From Pseudanabaena sp. PCC 6802 (lineage in GTDB: Bacteria; Cyanobacteriota; Cyanobacteriia; Pseudanabaenales; Pseudanabaenaceae), in contig NZ_KB235914.1 in the NCBI RefSeq assembly GCF_000332175.1, forward strand, positions 4,433,793-4,497,792: a DNA stretch of 64,000 nt. Reading direction: 5' to 3'. The position numbers and the translations under genes are program-made. Position 1 is the stretch's first letter. Every line of letters begins with the position of its first letter. The notes beneath the pieces are model-generated. The model ran no database searches. It had not been told where the DNA came from and worked only from the letters and a program-made list of their open reading frames with translations. Of this stretch, positions 52,478 through 60,602 are shown piece after piece.

Positions 52478-53938
52478 TTATTCTCCCATATTCTCCTTAA
52501 GCGATGCTTCTTGAGCTAAGATCGCAGCAGCGCAGAGTTGGCCGGAGAGCGTCGCTCCTTCCATGCTGTCGATGTAGTCTTGCATGGTATAGCTGCCAGA
52601 TAAGAAGAAGTTAGAGATGGGAGTTTTTTGGGGTGGGCGATAGGGATCCATGCCAGGTGCCTCGCGATAGAGCGATTGGGCGAGTTTTACTACGCCATAC
52701 CAGGTCATATTCAACTCGCGGGCTGATGGGAACAAAGCCTGGACTTGCTTGAGAACGTGTTGAGCGATCGCTTCGTTGCTTTCCTTGATGAATGGATCGC
52801 CGGGAGTGAGTACGAGTTGCAGCAAAGAACCCTGTCCTTTGCGGTAGTAGTTTGAGGGGCTGGTGAGAGCTAGATCTGCGAAGCAGGAAAAGTCAGCATC
52901 AGATGTATAGAGTAGATTATCCATGCCAGTGGCGCGAGCTAGCTGATGCCTTTGCGCGGGATCGTTGAGTTCGGTCACCCAACCGTCAAACCGCAATTGC
53001 ACTGTGGCAACTGGCACCGTTTCGAGCTTATAGATATTGTCGAATTCCTTCCATTTGCGCCACGCTGCTGGTAAAAGGCGCTGTACGCCCGGAACATCGC
53101 AAGCACAAACATAGGCATCAGCGATAATTTGCTCCTCTTCCTCTCCATTTGCCACCACCAAACCAGTTACTTGGGTGGCAGCGCCATCCTGGGTAAACTG
53201 AATTTCGCGAACGCGGCGACGGGTGTAAATCCTGGCACCTCTGGCTTCGAGGTAGTTGATAATCGGCTTATGCAGGTATTCGTGAGGAGAGCCTTCCAAC
53301 ATTCGCAATACCGATGCCTCGGTGCGAGCGGCAAACATTTGGAAGATGGTCAACATGCAACGGGCGGAAATATTCTCGCAATCGATAAATCCCAAGGCGT
53401 AGGCAATGGGATTCCACATGCGTTTGATACTGCCATTACTGCCGCCGTGACTGCGAAACCAATCGGCAAAGCTGATGCGATCTAGACTGCGGATAGTTTT
53501 CATCGCGCCTTCAAAATCGATCAAACCGCGCACGATGGGGCTGGTGCCGAGCGCGATCGCATTCTGAATCTTATCTTGCAGCGACAGTTGGGATGTGGTG
53601 AAGAAGGCTTTGAGACCGTTAAACGGCGCACCTGTAAAGAAGCGAAAATCCAGGGCACCGATGCGCCCACCTTCATTGACAAAGGTGTGAACGTGTTCCT
53701 TGCGCAGCAGACTTTTGAATGCGCCCACTTTCTGCATGAGGGCAAAGAGCTGGTAGTAGTTGCCAAAAAATACGTGCAGCCCCATTTCTACGTGGTTGCC
53801 ATCGGGATCGACCCAGCTACCGACTTTGCCACCCACAAACGGACGGGACTCAAAGATTTCTACCTGATAGCCGCGATCGCACAGTTCGACTGCTGTGGAC
53901 ATACCTGCTAACCCTGCACCAACGATCGCTACTCGCAT
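52478..53938 (-). CDS. zds: zeta-carotene desaturase
   Basis: 486 residues of the plant/cyanobacterial CrtQ/Zds type. [20 protein letters not shown] is the FAD-binding Rossmann start; [33 protein letters not shown] and the C-terminal [20 protein letters not shown] are typical. It introduces double bonds at C7 and C7' of 9,9'-di-cis-zeta-carotene to form lycopene isomers, passing electrons to plastoquinone at the thylakoid. It stands alone. Confidence 0.95.
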
Positions 53939-54838: not shown

Positions 54839-54940
54839 TCGCAAGGTAGACAATGCCCACCCTCCGATGTTTCTGCTGAAAATGTTAATTTCCTATATAG
54901 GCAATGCAAAGGCGTTTAATAGTAATGTTATCTTGTGGAA

Positions 54941-56017
54941 ATGCACGATCTAGAGCAATGCTATCGAATACTGGGGCTTGAGTCTGGTGCTTCGCTGGAA
55001 GAGGTGAACCAGGCATATAAGGATCTGGCGTTTATTTGGCACCCAGATCGCATTCCTAACGATAATCCCCGCTTGCAGGAAAAGGCGCAGGCAAAGCTCA
55101 AAGAAATTAATCAGGCACGGGATCGGTTGCGATCGCACCAGTCGCACCAGTCGCACCAGTCGCACCAATCGCACCAATCTAACGGTCACGCCCAGCAACC
55201 GCACGATCGATCGCACGCCCAGTCAAACACCCAGTCAAACGCCCAATCAAACGCCCAATCCGCCAGATCGCACGCCCAATCGCAGCATTATTATTCGCAG
55301 CCGCGCCAAAGTTACCAAACTTACCAACAGCATTATTGGCAGCGCGATCGCCAAGATCGCCAGCATCACGATCGCCAAGATCGCCAGCATCACGATCGCC
55401 AGCATCACGATCGGTCTCAGGAGCGATCGCAGTCCAAGACAACTTCGGCCTACCAGCAGAGCTATCAGCAAGCTAAAGCTGCCTACCAAAAAGCTCAGGA
55501 AGCACGGCAGCAGCAGGCACGACAAACCTATGAAGCGGAACAGGCAGAGCGCAAAGCTAGGCAGCAGGCTCAGCAAGAAACTCAGCGGCAAGCTCAGCCA
55601 CAACAGCCAAAGCACGATCGCGATCGCGAAAACAATTACAATCAACGTCCCGATCTCAGTGGTGCTAACTTTAGCGGTGCTAACCTGAGCGAACGGGATT
55701 TATCAGGGCGTAACCTTAGCCATGCCAACCTCAGTCATGCCGATCTCAAAGATGCCTTTTTGCATCGGATTAATTTAAATAGCGCTAATTTGCATAAGGC
55801 TAATCTTTTCAGGGCAAACCTCCTGCAAGCCGATCTGCGCAATGCTAACCTGCGCGAAGCTAACTTAATTGGAGCCGATCTCAGCGGTGCCGACCTGAGC
55901 GGTGCCGATCTAACTGGTGCCCAGATTAAGGTTGCGGATCGGCTCATGGTTAAGCTGACGGGTGCTAATCTCACCGACACGATCATGCCCGACGGCAGAA
56001 TTCACGATCGCGGCTAA
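54941..56017 (+). CDS. J-domain protein with His/Gln/Ser-rich linker and pentapeptide repeats
   Basis: 358 residues from the ATG at 54941; a GTG two codons earlier is possible. Residues 1-65 are a J-domain (YRILGLESGASLEEVNQAY, then WHPDRIPND with the HPD motif), which would stimulate a DnaK. Residues ~66-245 are low complexity: tandem SHQ units (TCGCACCAG repeats at DNA level) and Gln/Arg-rich blocks. Residues ~250-350 are pentapeptide repeats (LSGANFSGANLSERDL type), a right-handed beta-helix. The fusion could bring DnaK to a particular partner (inference). Confidence 0.88.
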   Translation: MHDLEQCYRILGLESGASLEEVNQAYKDLAFIWHPDRIPNDNPRLQEKAQAKLKEINQARDRLRSHQSHQSHQSHQSHQSNGHAQQPHDRSHAQSNTQSNAQSNAQSARSHAQSQHYYSQPRQSYQTYQQHYWQRDRQDRQHHDRQDRQHHDRQHHDRSQERSQSKTTSAYQQSYQQAKAAYQKAQEARQQQARQTYEAEQAERKARQQAQQETQRQAQPQQPKHDRDRENNYNQRPDLSGANFSGANLSERDLSGRNLSHANLSHADLKDAFLHRINLNSANLHKANLFRANLLQADLRNANLREANLIGADLSGADLSGADLTGAQIKVADRLMVKLTGANLTDTIMPDGRIHDRG

Positions 56018-56258: not shown

Positions 56259-57326
56259 ATGTTGAAAAACTTTTGGTATGCTTGCGAATTTAGTTCGGCT
56301 ATTACGAGCAAACCCAAACAAATTAAGCTATTGAACCAGGAGTTCGTTCTCTATCGCAATTCCCAAGGACAGATTATCGCTTTCAAAGATCGGTGCCCTC
56401 ATCGAGGCGCAGCTCTTTCACAAGGATGGAGCGATCGCGACTGTATCAGATGCCCCTATCACGGTTGGAAATTTCAGGCGGATGGGGCTTGCATTGAGAT
56501 TCCTTCAAACGAGGACGGAGAACTGATTCCTCACAAAGCTCGCCTGGATGCCTATCCGGCGCAAGAGAAATATGGTTTTGTCTGGCTGTTCTGGGGAGAT
56601 TTACCTGAATCGGAATGCCGTCCTCTCCCATCATTTCCAGAAATCAACAAATCGACATATCGACTCGTTCAAACTGAATTGACATCAACTGCTCACTACA
56701 CGCGCCTATTAGAAAACCATATCGATGCGATCCACCCTGCTTTTGTCCACCCTACCGCCTTTGGTAGCGGACTAGCAGACAATCCCAGATTTTCCAAGTT
56801 TGACCTGCAAATGCAAGATTGGGGAGCGACTGCCTCTTTTTATAATAAGAAATATCTACCCAAAGGCTTTTTGTGGACTTATATTTCCAAACTAATCCCA
56901 TCGGAGATTAAGATAACCATCGCCTTTCACCTTCCCAACATCGTATGCGTTGATATTGATGAGGGAAAGTTGGTTGTATATCTTATCCCCGTTCCCCATG
57001 ACGACAATACAGCCACAACCAAATCAATTCTATGTCGGCAGTTTTTAACCTCTGCTTGGGCAGACGGCATTTTCCGGAAGCTGGTTTTAAAAGCCCACCA
57101 GGAAGACGGTCAGATCGTAGAATCCCAACATCCCAAGGTAATGCCCCATGATCTAGAGGAAGAAGTTCATGTTTCCTCCGATGCGCTGTCGATCGCCTAT
57201 CGCGAGCTTCTCAAAAAAGCCATCGATATGGGTTGGGGAATTGAACGCAAGTCTCGCGATGCGTTTAATTTTGCAGTGCGAAGTCCAAACTGGGAAAAGT
57301 CCAAACTGTCCGAAGTTCAAAAATAG
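56259..57326 (+). CDS. Rieske-type non-haem iron oxygenase
   Basis: 355 residues. Rieske cluster ligands are CPHRGAALSQGW (Cys47, His49 approx.) and CPYHGWKFQ (Cys66, His69 approx.); the mononuclear iron site is ENHIDAIHPAFVHP (His-x4-His near 158-163), with an Asp expected in the C-terminal half. The architecture is that of phenylpropionate-dioxygenase-like alpha subunits. It needs a reductase, not encoded here. It sits 1 bp before the GH3 gene, so the two act in one pathway. The substrate is unknown; chlorophyll-catabolic members of the family are larger and membrane-anchored. Confidence 0.9.
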   Translation: MLKNFWYACEFSSAITSKPKQIKLLNQEFVLYRNSQGQIIAFKDRCPHRGAALSQGWSDRDCIRCPYHGWKFQADGACIEIPSNEDGELIPHKARLDAYPAQEKYGFVWLFWGDLPESECRPLPSFPEINKSTYRLVQTELTSTAHYTRLLENHIDAIHPAFVHPTAFGSGLADNPRFSKFDLQMQDWGATASFYNKKYLPKGFLWTYISKLIPSEIKITIAFHLPNIVCVDIDEGKLVVYLIPVPHDDNTATTKSILCRQFLTSAWADGIFRKLVLKAHQEDGQIVESQHPKVMPHDLEEEVHVSSDALSIAYRELLKKAIDMGWGIERKSRDAFNFAVRSPNWEKSKLSEVQK

Positions 57327-57327
57327 T

Positions 57328-59118
57328 ATGAGAATTGTCCTCATGTTAAGATTTTTTAAGGATAGATCGGAGCAATCTTTCTTTTCTCCATTATTTCGTC
57401 AAGTCGCAATCTTCATTGGCCGCATTCTTTTGCATTTATTGCGGCTACAGATGCTGCGGGCAACCCAGGCTAACTCGATCGCATTAAGACGGATAATCGC
57501 CAGAAATCAACACTCTGAGTTTGGTCAACAGCACCGATTTAGTTCTCTACTGAAAGATTCTCAAATCGCTAACAAGTATAAATCGCTAGTCCCGCTAAGT
57601 TCCTATCAGGATTACGAAGCAGCGATCGCTCGCATGAAACAGGGCGAACCAAACATCCTGGTCTCAGAGCCTCTTGTCAGTTTTGCCGCTACGGCTGGTA
57701 CGATGGGTTTGGCGAAGATCGTACCCAGAACCCGTTCCCATCTGAGAGTGCCGATGAAGATATCAGGACTATTGAACCCTGCCATAGGCACCAATTACTT
57801 TCTCAAAGGCAAGCCGCGAGGCAAAGGGATATGCTTGCTGACTGGTGCGGGAGCGATCGAAACGACTCAATCAGGAGCAACAGTTGAAGAGCACTCATCG
57901 ATGGGCATGCGTCGTGTTGCAAAGATGATTCCGCATCTGTGGTGTTCGCCTGCTGAGGTCTTTGCCATTGATGATGACCGCACTGCCAGGTATTTGCACG
58001 CCTTGTATGGCCTGCGAGACGATCGGGTTCAGTATATCGCTGCTACATACGCTCCATACGTGTTGCAGTGGCTGATTGACATGGAGAGTCGCTGGTCGGA
58101 ACTGGTTGACGACATCGAAAGCGGAACGCTCAGCGAGAATTTGACATTACCGCCAGCCGCGAGACAGTCGCTCGCAGCTAATTTGACTCCCGACCCCGCA
58201 CGCGCTGCCGTACTGCGTGCAGCAACAGCAAGTGGTTTCAGAGGTATCGCGCCGCGCATTTGGCCTCAGATGGCTTATGTTGAAACAGTGACTACAGGGA
58301 GTTTTAGTATCTACGTCCCCGCCTTGCAGTTCTACCTTGGCAATATCCCTCTTTTCAGTAGTTTCTATGGTTCCTCCGAGGCGGCTATAGGCATAGGGCT
58401 ATGGCCAGATCGCCCTGGAGACTACGCTCTGCCATTAGGTAGCGCCTATTACGAGTTCATTCCACTATCAGATGTGGATAAGGAGCACCCCAGGACAGTA
58501 GATCTCGATTCCCTGAAAATTGGCGAGTCATACGAAGTTGTCGTGACAAACTTGTCTGGATTCTATCGCTATCGCATAGGTGACATTGTCAAGATCGCGG
58601 GGCGCTATTTTGAAGCTCCCATACTGAATTTCAGCCATCGACGCGGAACGACACTGGATCTGGCTGGCGAGAAAACCAACGAAGCCCATGTCAAGACAAC
58701 TATCGATCGCCTAACAGATGAGTGGATGCAGGAAATGGATAGTTGCTGGCGCGACTACACGGCAGCCATCGATTCTACTACTACTACGCCATCTCGCTAT
58801 GTCTTTTATATCGAGCTTTTGGGCGATATCGTACCATCTGTAGCGATCGCCACCATCGATCGAGGAGCGCAGTTGCTCGATAAAGCTCTTGGGGATGTCA
58901 ATCGCGCCTATCGACTGCAACGCCGCCAGGGGTCGATCGGGATGCCGCAGGTCAAGCTGTTAGCAAGCGGCAGCTTTAGCCTGCTGAGCGAAAAGAGAAA
59001 TCTCAATCAGCTCAAGATCCCGAGATATTTAACCAATAAGCAGCAAATAGACCTGCTAGAGTCGCGGGTTATTGCGGCATCAGATCGGGAAGAAAGTCAT
59101 AATTTAGCACTTGCTTAA
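57328..59118 (+). CDS. GH3 family acyl-acid-amido synthetase-like protein
   Basis: 596 residues from the ATG at 57328, chosen because the frame upstream overlaps the Rieske gene; an ATG at 57343 is an alternative. GH3 signature: SFAATAGTMGLAKIVPRT (phosphate-binding loop, here Ala-Ala-Thr-Ala-Gly rather than Ser-Ser-Gly-Thr), FYGSSEAAIGIGL and YRYRIGDIVKI. Plant GH3 enzymes adenylate a carboxylic acid and join it to an amino acid; bacterial roles are little known. Directly after a Rieske oxygenase, it would activate or conjugate the oxidised product (inference). Confidence 0.9.
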   Translation: MRIVLMLRFFKDRSEQSFFSPLFRQVAIFIGRILLHLLRLQMLRATQANSIALRRIIARNQHSEFGQQHRFSSLLKDSQIANKYKSLVPLSSYQDYEAAIARMKQGEPNILVSEPLVSFAATAGTMGLAKIVPRTRSHLRVPMKISGLLNPAIGTNYFLKGKPRGKGICLLTGAGAIETTQSGATVEEHSSMGMRRVAKMIPHLWCSPAEVFAIDDDRTARYLHALYGLRDDRVQYIAATYAPYVLQWLIDMESRWSELVDDIESGTLSENLTLPPAARQSLAANLTPDPARAAVLRAATASGFRGIAPRIWPQMAYVETVTTGSFSIYVPALQFYLGNIPLFSSFYGSSEAAIGIGLWPDRPGDYALPLGSAYYEFIPLSDVDKEHPRTVDLDSLKIGESYEVVVTNLSGFYRYRIGDIVKIAGRYFEAPILNFSHRRGTTLDLAGEKTNEAHVKTTIDRLTDEWMQEMDSCWRDYTAAIDSTTTTPSRYVFYIELLGDIVPSVAIATIDRGAQLLDKALGDVNRAYRLQRRQGSIGMPQVKLLASGSFSLLSEKRNLNQLKIPRYLTNKQQIDLLESRVIAASDREESHNLALA

Positions 59119-59167
59119 ACTTTAGAAACACTTGTTGGGAACACTTAGTTTTAAGGATATCTTTCTC

Positions 59168-59755
59168 ATGGAATTAGAACAATTATCTACTCTGGAAAAT
59201 CCATATCGCGATCGCGATATAGTATCTGCTGTAGAGCTTGCGATCGCCCTGAACGCTACTGACTCGGTTGAATGGCTTCATGTCGGTCAAACCATGACTC
59301 CTGCTCCTAACCCATTCTCAATAACTTCATCAGGAGGAATTGGCGCTACCGTTCGCATTCCCTCTGGAACTTTTTTGAGAATCGATCAAACTCCTTCTTT
59401 CCCAGGAGCTTTTGATGTGGGTGATGCTCTACTTTTTACTGGTCTTGCTAATCCAGGCCCCCTGACCATTACGTTTGATGTGCCAGTATTTGGTGCGGGC
59501 ACGCACATCCAATCAGATCCCGCGAATACTCCCAACTATATTGTCACTGTTGAAGCTTTCGATCGCGGCGATCGCAGCTTGGGTAAATTTGAATTTTCAG
59601 GTGTTAGCTCCAAGGTTGCTGGTAGTGGCGTACTTTTCGTTGGTCTGCTCGATCGCAGCGGTAGTATCAAAAAACTGGTGCTTAACGCACTAGAACAGGG
59701 AGCTAGCGTTCCTTTTGCCATAAATGCAATCGCGCTCAGAACTAGCATTACATAA
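59168..59755 (+). CDS. beta-sandwich protein of unknown function following GH3
   Basis: 195 residues from the ATG at 59168 (AAGGA 9 bp upstream); a TTG at 59132 would add 12 residues. It is rich in Gly, Ser, Thr and Pro, with alternating strand patterns (FLRIDQTPSFPGAFDVGDAL, LTITFDVPVFGAGTHI, GKFEFSGVSSKVAGSG). It looks like the beta domain of PEP-CTERM-type exported proteins but has neither a signal peptide nor a sorting tail. It is 49 bp after GH3, so it may be the third gene of that operon. Confidence 0.65.
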   Translation: MELEQLSTLENPYRDRDIVSAVELAIALNATDSVEWLHVGQTMTPAPNPFSITSSGGIGATVRIPSGTFLRIDQTPSFPGAFDVGDALLFTGLANPGPLTITFDVPVFGAGTHIQSDPANTPNYIVTVEAFDRGDRSLGKFEFSGVSSKVAGSGVLFVGLLDRSGSIKKLVLNALEQGASVPFAINAIALRTSIT

Positions 59756-59936: not shown

Positions 59937-60602
59937 ATGTCACTGCAATCGTTGCCCCCTCTCTTGGAATTTGCTGCAAAACCTTCCTTGAAACTGGTTG
60001 CGGAGTCTGCTTCGATTAAATTCGATACCTTTGATGTCAATCCGTATGAATATTTGAGCAGGCAACAGCTCGATTCTCTAGCTTCAAGCGATCGCGTAGA
60101 GTACTGCTCGCTGCTAATTCCGGGAGCAAATGGGCTGGGGAACTTATTTGAGAATATTTGCGATCGCGCTAGTAGGGCGCACCAAATTCTCTCACTGTCA
60201 GGGAACCCATTTACAGCGCTGAGCATGGCTAAGTCAGTCGTGCGGAGGCTATCGCCCCAAAAAGCCATTCATATCATCGCTCACTCTAATGGCAATCTCA
60301 ACGTCGTTCCTTTTTTGGTAACCTCTCTACAGACTTTAGTTAGGAGGATGGCCTGGGATCTCGTCCCAATTAAAGTATGCAGGTTAGATCCAATTGGAAT
60401 TCCCAAATCTACAGTTGTCGGTGCCGCGCAAGTAATTGATATTGGAAGTAATAAACCGGATTCAAACGATCTGCGCGATCGAGCTGCTTTGAGCTTTCTG
60501 CGCCCCGATTTTCGAGTGCGACAGGGGATCGGGCACTACGATCTACTCAACGATACCGAAATTCTCGACCGCCTGATAGAAACGCCATACAATTTCTTCT
60601 GA
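59937..60602 (+). CDS. possible alpha/beta hydrolase-like protein
   Basis: 221 residues, not assigned to a named family. HIIAHSNGNLNV (near 113-124) looks like a nucleophile elbow (x-H-S-x-G), with RLDPIGIP (Asp near 162) and QGIGHYDLLN (His near 203) in the order of a Ser-Asp-His triad. An N-terminal LIPGANGLGNLFENI could be the oxyanion part. There is no signal peptide. It is flanked by repeat elements on both sides. Confidence 0.6.
   Translation: MSLQSLPPLLEFAAKPSLKLVAESASIKFDTFDVNPYEYLSRQQLDSLASSDRVEYCSLLIPGANGLGNLFENICDRASRAHQILSLSGNPFTALSMAKSVVRRLSPQKAIHIIAHSNGNLNVVPFLVTSLQTLVRRMAWDLVPIKVCRLDPIGIPKSTVVGAAQVIDIGSNKPDSNDLRDRAALSFLRPDFRVRQGIGHYDLLNDTEILDRLIETPYNFF

What the first reader, a model, noticed from the sequence alone, without database searches (positions are those of the whole stretch)
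57328..59755. Bacterial GH3 acid-amido synthetase directly behind a Rieske oxygenase
The two genes are separated by one base, and a third gene for a beta-rich protein follows. GH3 enzymes are known mainly from plants, where they conjugate hormones to amino acids. A Rieske-GH3 pair suggests oxidation then conjugation of an aromatic or lipid acid. The GH3 phosphate loop is unusual (AATAGTMG), so chemistry may differ.
Basis: partly seen in the sequence, partly recalled or inferred. Interest (0 to 1): 0.55.

Follow-up and report, generated by a model that had tools for sequence, protein, structure and literature searches.

The report
Plant-type GH3 enzyme beside Rieske oxygenase
A cyanobacterium carries, directly behind a Rieske oxygenase gene, a relative of the plant enzymes that attach amino acids to hormones; its ATP-gripping loop lacks a serine that a related enzyme needs to work, and the gene pairing was not seen in the closest relatives examined.

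Summary
A 355-aa VanA-type Rieske oxygenase (56259-57326) ends one base before a full-length GH3 protein (57328-59118), followed 13 bases later by a small orphan ORF. The odd phosphate loop is real: TAGTMGLAK appears once in 152 aligned GH3 proteins, and the replaced serine (S123A) matches OlsH S115, whose Ala variant had no detectable activity. Of 28 near-invariant GH3 columns the window breaks only two, so the rest of the protein looks constrained.

By phylogeny this is a rare plant-type bacterial GH3, grouping with plant enzymes, two Actinomycetota MAGs, one Myxococcota MAG and one other cyanobacterium, apart from ordinary cyanobacterial GH3s. The pair itself is not conserved: 0 of 4 plant-type bacterial GH3 loci have a nearby Rieske. 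Yet a different, shorter GH3 sits in a conserved cyanobacterial operon with a different Rieske and a fatty-acid hydroxylase (Rieske in 23 of 42 loci), so Rieske-GH3 linkage recurs.

Best reading: oxidise an acid, then amidate it with an amino acid, with an impaired or modified adenylation step. A dead GH3 is the main rival. Nothing here shows substrate or activity.

The parts
56259..57326 (+). Rieske non-haem iron oxygenase, VanA type, 355 aa
   Evidence: PF00355 81.1 bits and VanA_C 73.3 bits, both over cut-off; best solved relatives NdmA, SxtDIOX, SxtT
56394..56462 (+). Rieske [2Fe-2S] ligand motif CPHRG...CPYH (residues 46-68)
   Evidence: pattern C-x-H-x(n)-C-x2-H found at residue 46; meaning of the motif is general knowledge
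56724..56750 (+). mononuclear iron ligand motif DAIHPAFVH (residues 156-164)
   Evidence: pattern D-x2-H-x(3-4)-H found at residue 156; meaning is general knowledge
57328..59118 (+). GH3 acyl-acid amido synthetase homologue, 596 aa, plant-type clade
   Evidence: PF03321, PF23571, PF23572 over cut-off; trees; model matches JAR1 Z 42.2
57691..57717 (+). variant phosphate loop TAGTMGLAK (residues 122-130; S123A and T126M against the clade consensus)
   Evidence: alignment of 152 GH3; codons; residue map to JAR1
58366..58380 (+). GH3 nucleotide motif II YGSSE (residues 347-351), intact
58558..58584 (+). GH3 nucleotide motif III GFYRYRIGD (residues 411-419), intact and plant-like (Arg416; Asp in the main cyanobacterial clade)
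59014..59016 (+). C-terminal lysine K563 in QLKIPR, near-invariant; presumed catalytic Lys by analogy with acyl-adenylate enzymes
   Evidence: conservation; role is general knowledge
59132..59755 (+). orphan ORF, 207 aa, 13 bases after GH3; core resembles the middle of cyanobacterial proteins that look PEP-CTERM-like but have extra N- and C-terminal parts absent here; not counted as part of the system
   Evidence: no Pfam family at E 0.1, no NCBIfam match over cut-off; weak homologues in 8 of 243 other genomes; sequences read

Best explanation
Two probably co-transcribed genes form a short oxidise-then-conjugate unit. The Rieske enzyme, fed by a general ferredoxin, hydroxylates or demethylates an organic acid. 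The GH3 protein then joins that acid to an amino acid by the GH3 mechanism: acyl-adenylate formation with ATP and Mg2+, rotation of the C-terminal domain, and attack by the amine. Shown: gene identity, spacing, strand, intact Rieske ligand motifs, intact GH3 motifs II and III and the C-terminal Lys, and plant-type ancestry. Inferred: co-transcription, functional coupling, and that the altered loop (loss of two hydroxyls) slows or changes the adenylation step rather than abolishing it. The acid and the amino acid are unknown. One pocket position that is Trp in JAR1 and Phe/Trp/Tyr in the six other plant or plant-type proteins compared is Ala353 here, compatible with a bulkier acid.
For: Pfam and fold identity. 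One-base gap, same strand. Of 28 columns conserved in at least 95% of GH3s only Q49N (shared with the three nearest relatives) and S123A differ, on an end branch of 0.71 changes per column. Three separate Rieske lineages lie near three GH3 lineages in cyanobacteria. The closest Rieske relatives sit in a cluster that also holds an ATP-grasp protein, a class that includes amide ligases (general knowledge), plus a FAD oxidase and exporter genes. GH3 two-step mechanism: PMC11253546 (passages). Pocket map.
Against: S123A corresponds to OlsH S115A, which had no detectable activity at any pH, ATP level or cation tested (PMC12493201, passages). The pair is absent from all 4 plant-type bacterial relatives and GH3 is absent from 34 other genomes of the same family. 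Class A Rieske-GH3 linkage is only weakly peaked: 2.1 Rieske per 100 kb within 3 kb against 1.3 at 4.5-8 kb. No reductase or ferredoxin gene is next to the window pair.
Confidence: 0.42

Rival explanations
1. The GH3 protein is catalytically dead or nearly so: two point changes in the phosphate loop removed hydroxyls that clamp the ATP phosphates. It survives as a binding or scaffold protein, or is at the start of decay.
For: The same serine is essential in OlsH. The loop is unique in 152 sequences. Each change is one nucleotide from a Ser or Thr codon.
Against: 26 of 28 near-invariant columns are kept, and motifs II and III are intact. The ORF is full length. 4 other GH3s of 152 also lack Ser at that position, with Thr or Gly.
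Confidence: 0.33
2. The two genes are neighbours without a shared pathway, brought together by separate transfers.
For: The nearest relatives of each gene lack the other. Both genes are patchy in distribution. The third gene's homologues show no GH3 or Rieske within about 1.5 kb in any of 10 loci.
Against: One-base spacing on one strand. Rieske-GH3 linkage recurs with unrelated members in other cyanobacteria.
Confidence: 0.2
3. It is an OlsH-type enzyme making N-acyl-ornithine for ornithine lipids.
For: OlsH is the only bacterial GH3 whose characterisation I found in the papers searched; two alpha/beta-hydrolase-like ORFs lie within 4 kb (one by Pfam; one by eye), and OlsI is of that superfamily (PMC12493201, passages).
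Against: OlsH model 63.8 bits against a cut-off of 620. The tree places it with plant enzymes; OlsH itself was not in the tree.
Confidence: 0.05

Closest known systems
Plant GH3 acyl-acid amido synthetases (JAR1/GH3.11, GH3-1, GH3.8)
   Same: Full-length homology, shared clade (100/99 and 95/95), same fold (JAR1 Z 42.2), motifs II and III
   Different: Phosphate loop TAGTMG instead of SSGTSxG; different acid-pocket residues; bacterial; next to a Rieske gene
OlsH, lyso-ornithine lipid synthetase of planctomycetes
   Same: GH3 family in a bacterium
   Different: 63.8 bits against the 620 cut-off; loop Ser replaced; no gene identified as OlsI next to it
Plant-type GH3s of Acidimicrobiia (L156, L157) and Myxococcales (L158) MAGs
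   Same: Nearest relatives, about 37-41% identity; share Q49N and the Arg416 form of motif III
   Different: Normal SSGTTG loop; no Rieske in the DNA held around them (L156 has almost no 5' flank)
Tandem Rieske proteins of cyanobacterial genomes G245, G151, G297, G329 (one family, f28) beside a HemF-like protein, a FAD oxidase and exporter genes
   Same: Closest relatives of the window Rieske, about 50% identity, clade 100/99
   Different: Two copies in tandem and no GH3

Membership tests
GH3 family (Pfam GH3 N, M and C domains) | all three domain models over cut-off | tested here: met
   226.9, 82.7 and 56.6 bits against 23.6
GH3 family | nucleotide motif I, (S/T)SG(S/T)(S/T)(x)GxxK | tested here: not met
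   TAGTMGLAK: Ser to Ala and Ser/Thr to Met; lowers the claim of a normal active GH3, not the homology
GH3 family | nucleotide motifs II and III | tested here: met
   YGSSE and GFYRYRIGD
GH3 family | ATP-dependent acyl-amino acid synthesis | not testable with these tools
   needs an enzyme assay
Plant-type GH3 clade | groups with plant GH3s against the main cyanobacterial and short GH3 clades | tested here: met
   8 rows 100/99 under LG+G4 and 95/95 under LG+C20; 3 plant chains only, partial
OlsH lyso-ornithine lipid synthetase (NF052613) | NCBIfam equivalog cut-off | tested here: not met
   63.8 bits against 620
Rieske oxygenase, VanA type | Rieske and VanA_C domains with both iron-ligand motifs | tested here: met
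4beta-methylsterol monooxygenase SdmA (NF052579) | NCBIfam equivalog cut-off | tested here: not met
   115.1 bits against 600

The most novel reading that the evidence does not exclude
Coupling a Rieske oxygenase to a GH3 ligase is a recurrent, undescribed cyanobacterial way of making oxidised acids conjugated to amino acids, evolved at least three times with different Rieske and GH3 lineages. In this window the GH3 is a bacterial cousin of plant hormone-conjugating enzymes that works with an altered phosphate loop.
Probability: 0.15. Interest if true: 0.68.

Novelty: new variant of a known kind. Interest (0 to 1): 0.42.

Why it matters
Plant GH3s control auxin and jasmonate, and their origin is debated; transfer of a GH3 from bacteria to an alga has been suggested (PMC10015382, passages). 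Bacterial proteins that group with the plant enzymes give that question testable outgroups. A natural GH3 without the loop serine tests how much of the ATP clamp is needed. The recurrent Rieske-GH3 linkages give concrete operons to search for new oxidised acyl-amino acids.

Tried and rejected
A single-sequence scan of genome contigs found no relative; an alignment query found 136, of which 80 were kept.

I first called the shorter (about 505 aa) cyanobacterial GH3s 'OlsH-like' (also in my notes); the OlsH model gives the tested one only 23.8 bits against 620, so the label is dropped. 'Class A' and 'class B' here mean GH3s above and below a bit-score line with my own profile. Class B is a mixed remainder: in the tree 17 of 18 sampled rows fall on one branch, and L108 does not.

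Class A linkage to Rieske looked strong by count (13 of 102 within 3 kb, 9 on the same strand). An inner-versus-outer ring control showed only 2.1 against 1.3 per 100 kb, and for class B 8.9 against 7.6, because its clusters hold further Rieske genes several kb out. I therefore rely on gene order and on the Rieske tree rather than on distance enrichment.

Horizontal-transfer signs: GH3 base composition is ordinary for the window (GC 0.50, GC3 0.52); ORF3 is low (GC3 0.35). A phage link: no PHROGs family for the three proteins. Promoters and terminators near the genes: no more than in shuffles. Solved-structure sequence search with ORF3: nothing meaningful, best E 0.54.

A selection test (dN/dS) was not possible: no close relative was found. 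Acidimicrobiia and Myxococcota samples gave 1 of 119 and 3 of 103 genomes with a match at E 1e-40, the centre genome included in each.

Full report
What is there. On the + strand a 355-aa Rieske oxygenase gene (56259-57326) ends one base before a 596-aa GH3 gene (57328-59118), and a 207-aa ORF starts 13 bases later (59132-59755). The GH3 protein passes the Pfam cut-offs of the N, M and C domains and aligns over nearly its whole length with plant GH3 structures (best 235 bits, grape GH3-1). An AlphaFold model (mean pLDDT 81.1, alignment of 17) matches Arabidopsis JAR1 best: Z 42.2, rmsd 2.2 over 401 residues, 31% identity. The Rieske protein carries Rieske and VanA_C domains and both iron-ligand patterns. 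Its solved relatives include NdmA and SxtT/SxtDIOX.

Phosphate loop. The window reads TAGTMGLAK where the nearest relatives read SSGTTGxxK and most cyanobacterial GH3s TSGSTGxxK. In an alignment of 152 GH3 proteins (window and three plant chains included) the five letters TAGTM occur once; the second letter is not Ser in 5 of 152 (TTGST twice, TGGST twice, TAGTM once). That serine corresponds to JAR1 S101 in the numbering of PMC12493201 and to OlsH S115 (and the motif alignment quoted). OlsH S115A had no detectable activity (PMC12493201, passages). Against decay, of 28 columns at least 95% conserved the window deviates at Q49N (shared with L156-L158) and S123A only, on an end branch of 0.71 changes per column. 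The codons are each one nucleotide from Ser and Thr codons. I cannot rule out assembly error, but two substitutions without a frameshift make it unlikely (inference).

Ancestry. GH3 genes were found in 53 of 386 cyanobacterial genomes at E 0.001 and 97 of 388 in a class sample at E 1e-20, but in none of 34 other genomes of the window's family. The best cyanobacterial match is 36% (G501). The best overall are an Acidimicrobiia and an Acidimicrobiales MAG (39%) and a Myxococcales MAG (37%). In a 46-row tree the window groups with these three (100/99), and these four with G501 and three plant GH3s (100/99), apart from the other cyanobacterial GH3s. A 30-row mixture-model tree keeps both groups (100/99 and 95/95); whether G501 belongs with plants or with the window group is unsettled (82/50). 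Plant-like residues back this, such as Arg416 where the main cyanobacterial clade has Asp. Sampling of other bacteria and of plants is thin, so the direction of any transfer is open.

Is the pair conserved? Not in what I could see. Of 4 plant-type bacterial GH3 loci none has a Rieske gene within 3 kb; three of them have at least 3 kb on both sides. The window Rieske groups with tandem Rieske pairs of four genomes of another cyanobacterial family (100/99). There the neighbours are an ATP-grasp protein, a HemF-like coproporphyrinogen oxidase, a FAD oxidase, HlyD and FtsX proteins, and no GH3. Six further loci with related Rieske genes also have no GH3.

Recurrent linkage elsewhere. Gene maps of 58 GH3 neighbourhoods and a larger deduplicated set show two other Rieske-GH3 arrangements. 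(a) A short GH3 closes a same-strand run: ferritin-like protein (sub-threshold match), a protein of unknown family with a sub-threshold AurF match, [2Fe-2S] ferredoxin, Rieske, fatty-acid hydroxylase PF04116, a hexapeptide-type protein, GH3 (Pfam on L114). A same-strand Rieske lies within 3 kb in 23 of 42 class B loci, the hydroxylase within 6 kb in 27 of 42, and the hexapeptide-type protein in 30 of 42. In the evenly drawn sample all 22 genomes with this GH3 were looked at; 13 of 22 have the Rieske within 3 kb on the same strand (read; L283 and L277 have little flank). (b) For the main cyanobacterial GH3, 13 of 102 have a Rieske within 3 kb, 9 on the same strand. In L096 the run is GH3, MFS, Rieske, aminotransferase, GNAT and a 3-beta-HSD-like SDR, with the MFS gene on the other strand. 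The ring control is weak for this group, but all 12 sampled Rieske proteins near such GH3s form one clade (100/100). The three linkages use different Rieske clades and different GH3 clades.

Third gene. Weak homologues occur in 8 of 243 other genomes. They have what looks like a signal peptide and a PEP-CTERM-like tail (my reading), which the window ORF lacks. None of 10 such loci shows GH3 or Rieske in the roughly 1.5 kb held on each side. I do not count it as part of the system.

Literature. Searches for Rieske + GH3 + cyanobacteria, GH3 + Rieske + operon + acyl and 'GH3 auxin-responsive promoter' + cyanobacteri each gave 0 papers in the held library. PMC12493201 reports bacterial GH3s as widespread and includes two cyanobacterial sequences in its tree (passages). 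PMC10015382 reports the suggestion that an algal GH3 came from bacteria (passages). PMC11253546 describes the two-step mechanism (passages). Most subscription literature was not searched.

Judgement. The genes and the odd loop are real. The coupling hypothesis is reasonable and gains indirect support from recurrent linkage, but for this pair it rests on spacing alone. The loop makes an impaired GH3 a serious alternative.

Noticed in passing
L114 (also L113, L116-L118, L120-L123, L126, L128, L270-L276): Conserved cyanobacterial operon: ferritin-like protein, unknown ~400-aa protein (sub-threshold AurF match), [2Fe-2S] ferredoxin, Rieske, fatty-acid hydroxylase, hexapeptide-type protein, short GH3 (not every locus has every gene); no paper found.
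   Followed up: partly
L096, L074, L076, L093: Another cyanobacterial cluster: long GH3, MFS transporter, Rieske, aminotransferase (L096 also GNAT, SDR and ABC-type export proteins).
   Followed up: partly
L132, L133, L244, L245: Tandem Rieske pair with HemF-like protein, cytokinin-dehydrogenase-like FAD oxidase, HlyD and FtsX proteins, and (L132) an ATP-grasp protein with PGM1 C-terminal domain: looks like a biosynthetic and export cluster.
   Followed up: partly
54935-56017: DnaJ domain joined to pentapeptide repeats through a long Gln/Ser/His-rich repetitive linker.
   Followed up: no
52478-53938: Zeta-carotene desaturase, 902.7 bits to TIGR02732 against a cut-off of 622.15.
   Followed up: no
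59937-60602: 221-aa ORF with an AHSNGN motif that may be a trimmed alpha/beta hydrolase; no Pfam match.
   Followed up: no
G049 contig C11 (L074): Two GH3 genes in tandem followed by MFS, Rieske and aminotransferase genes.
   Followed up: no
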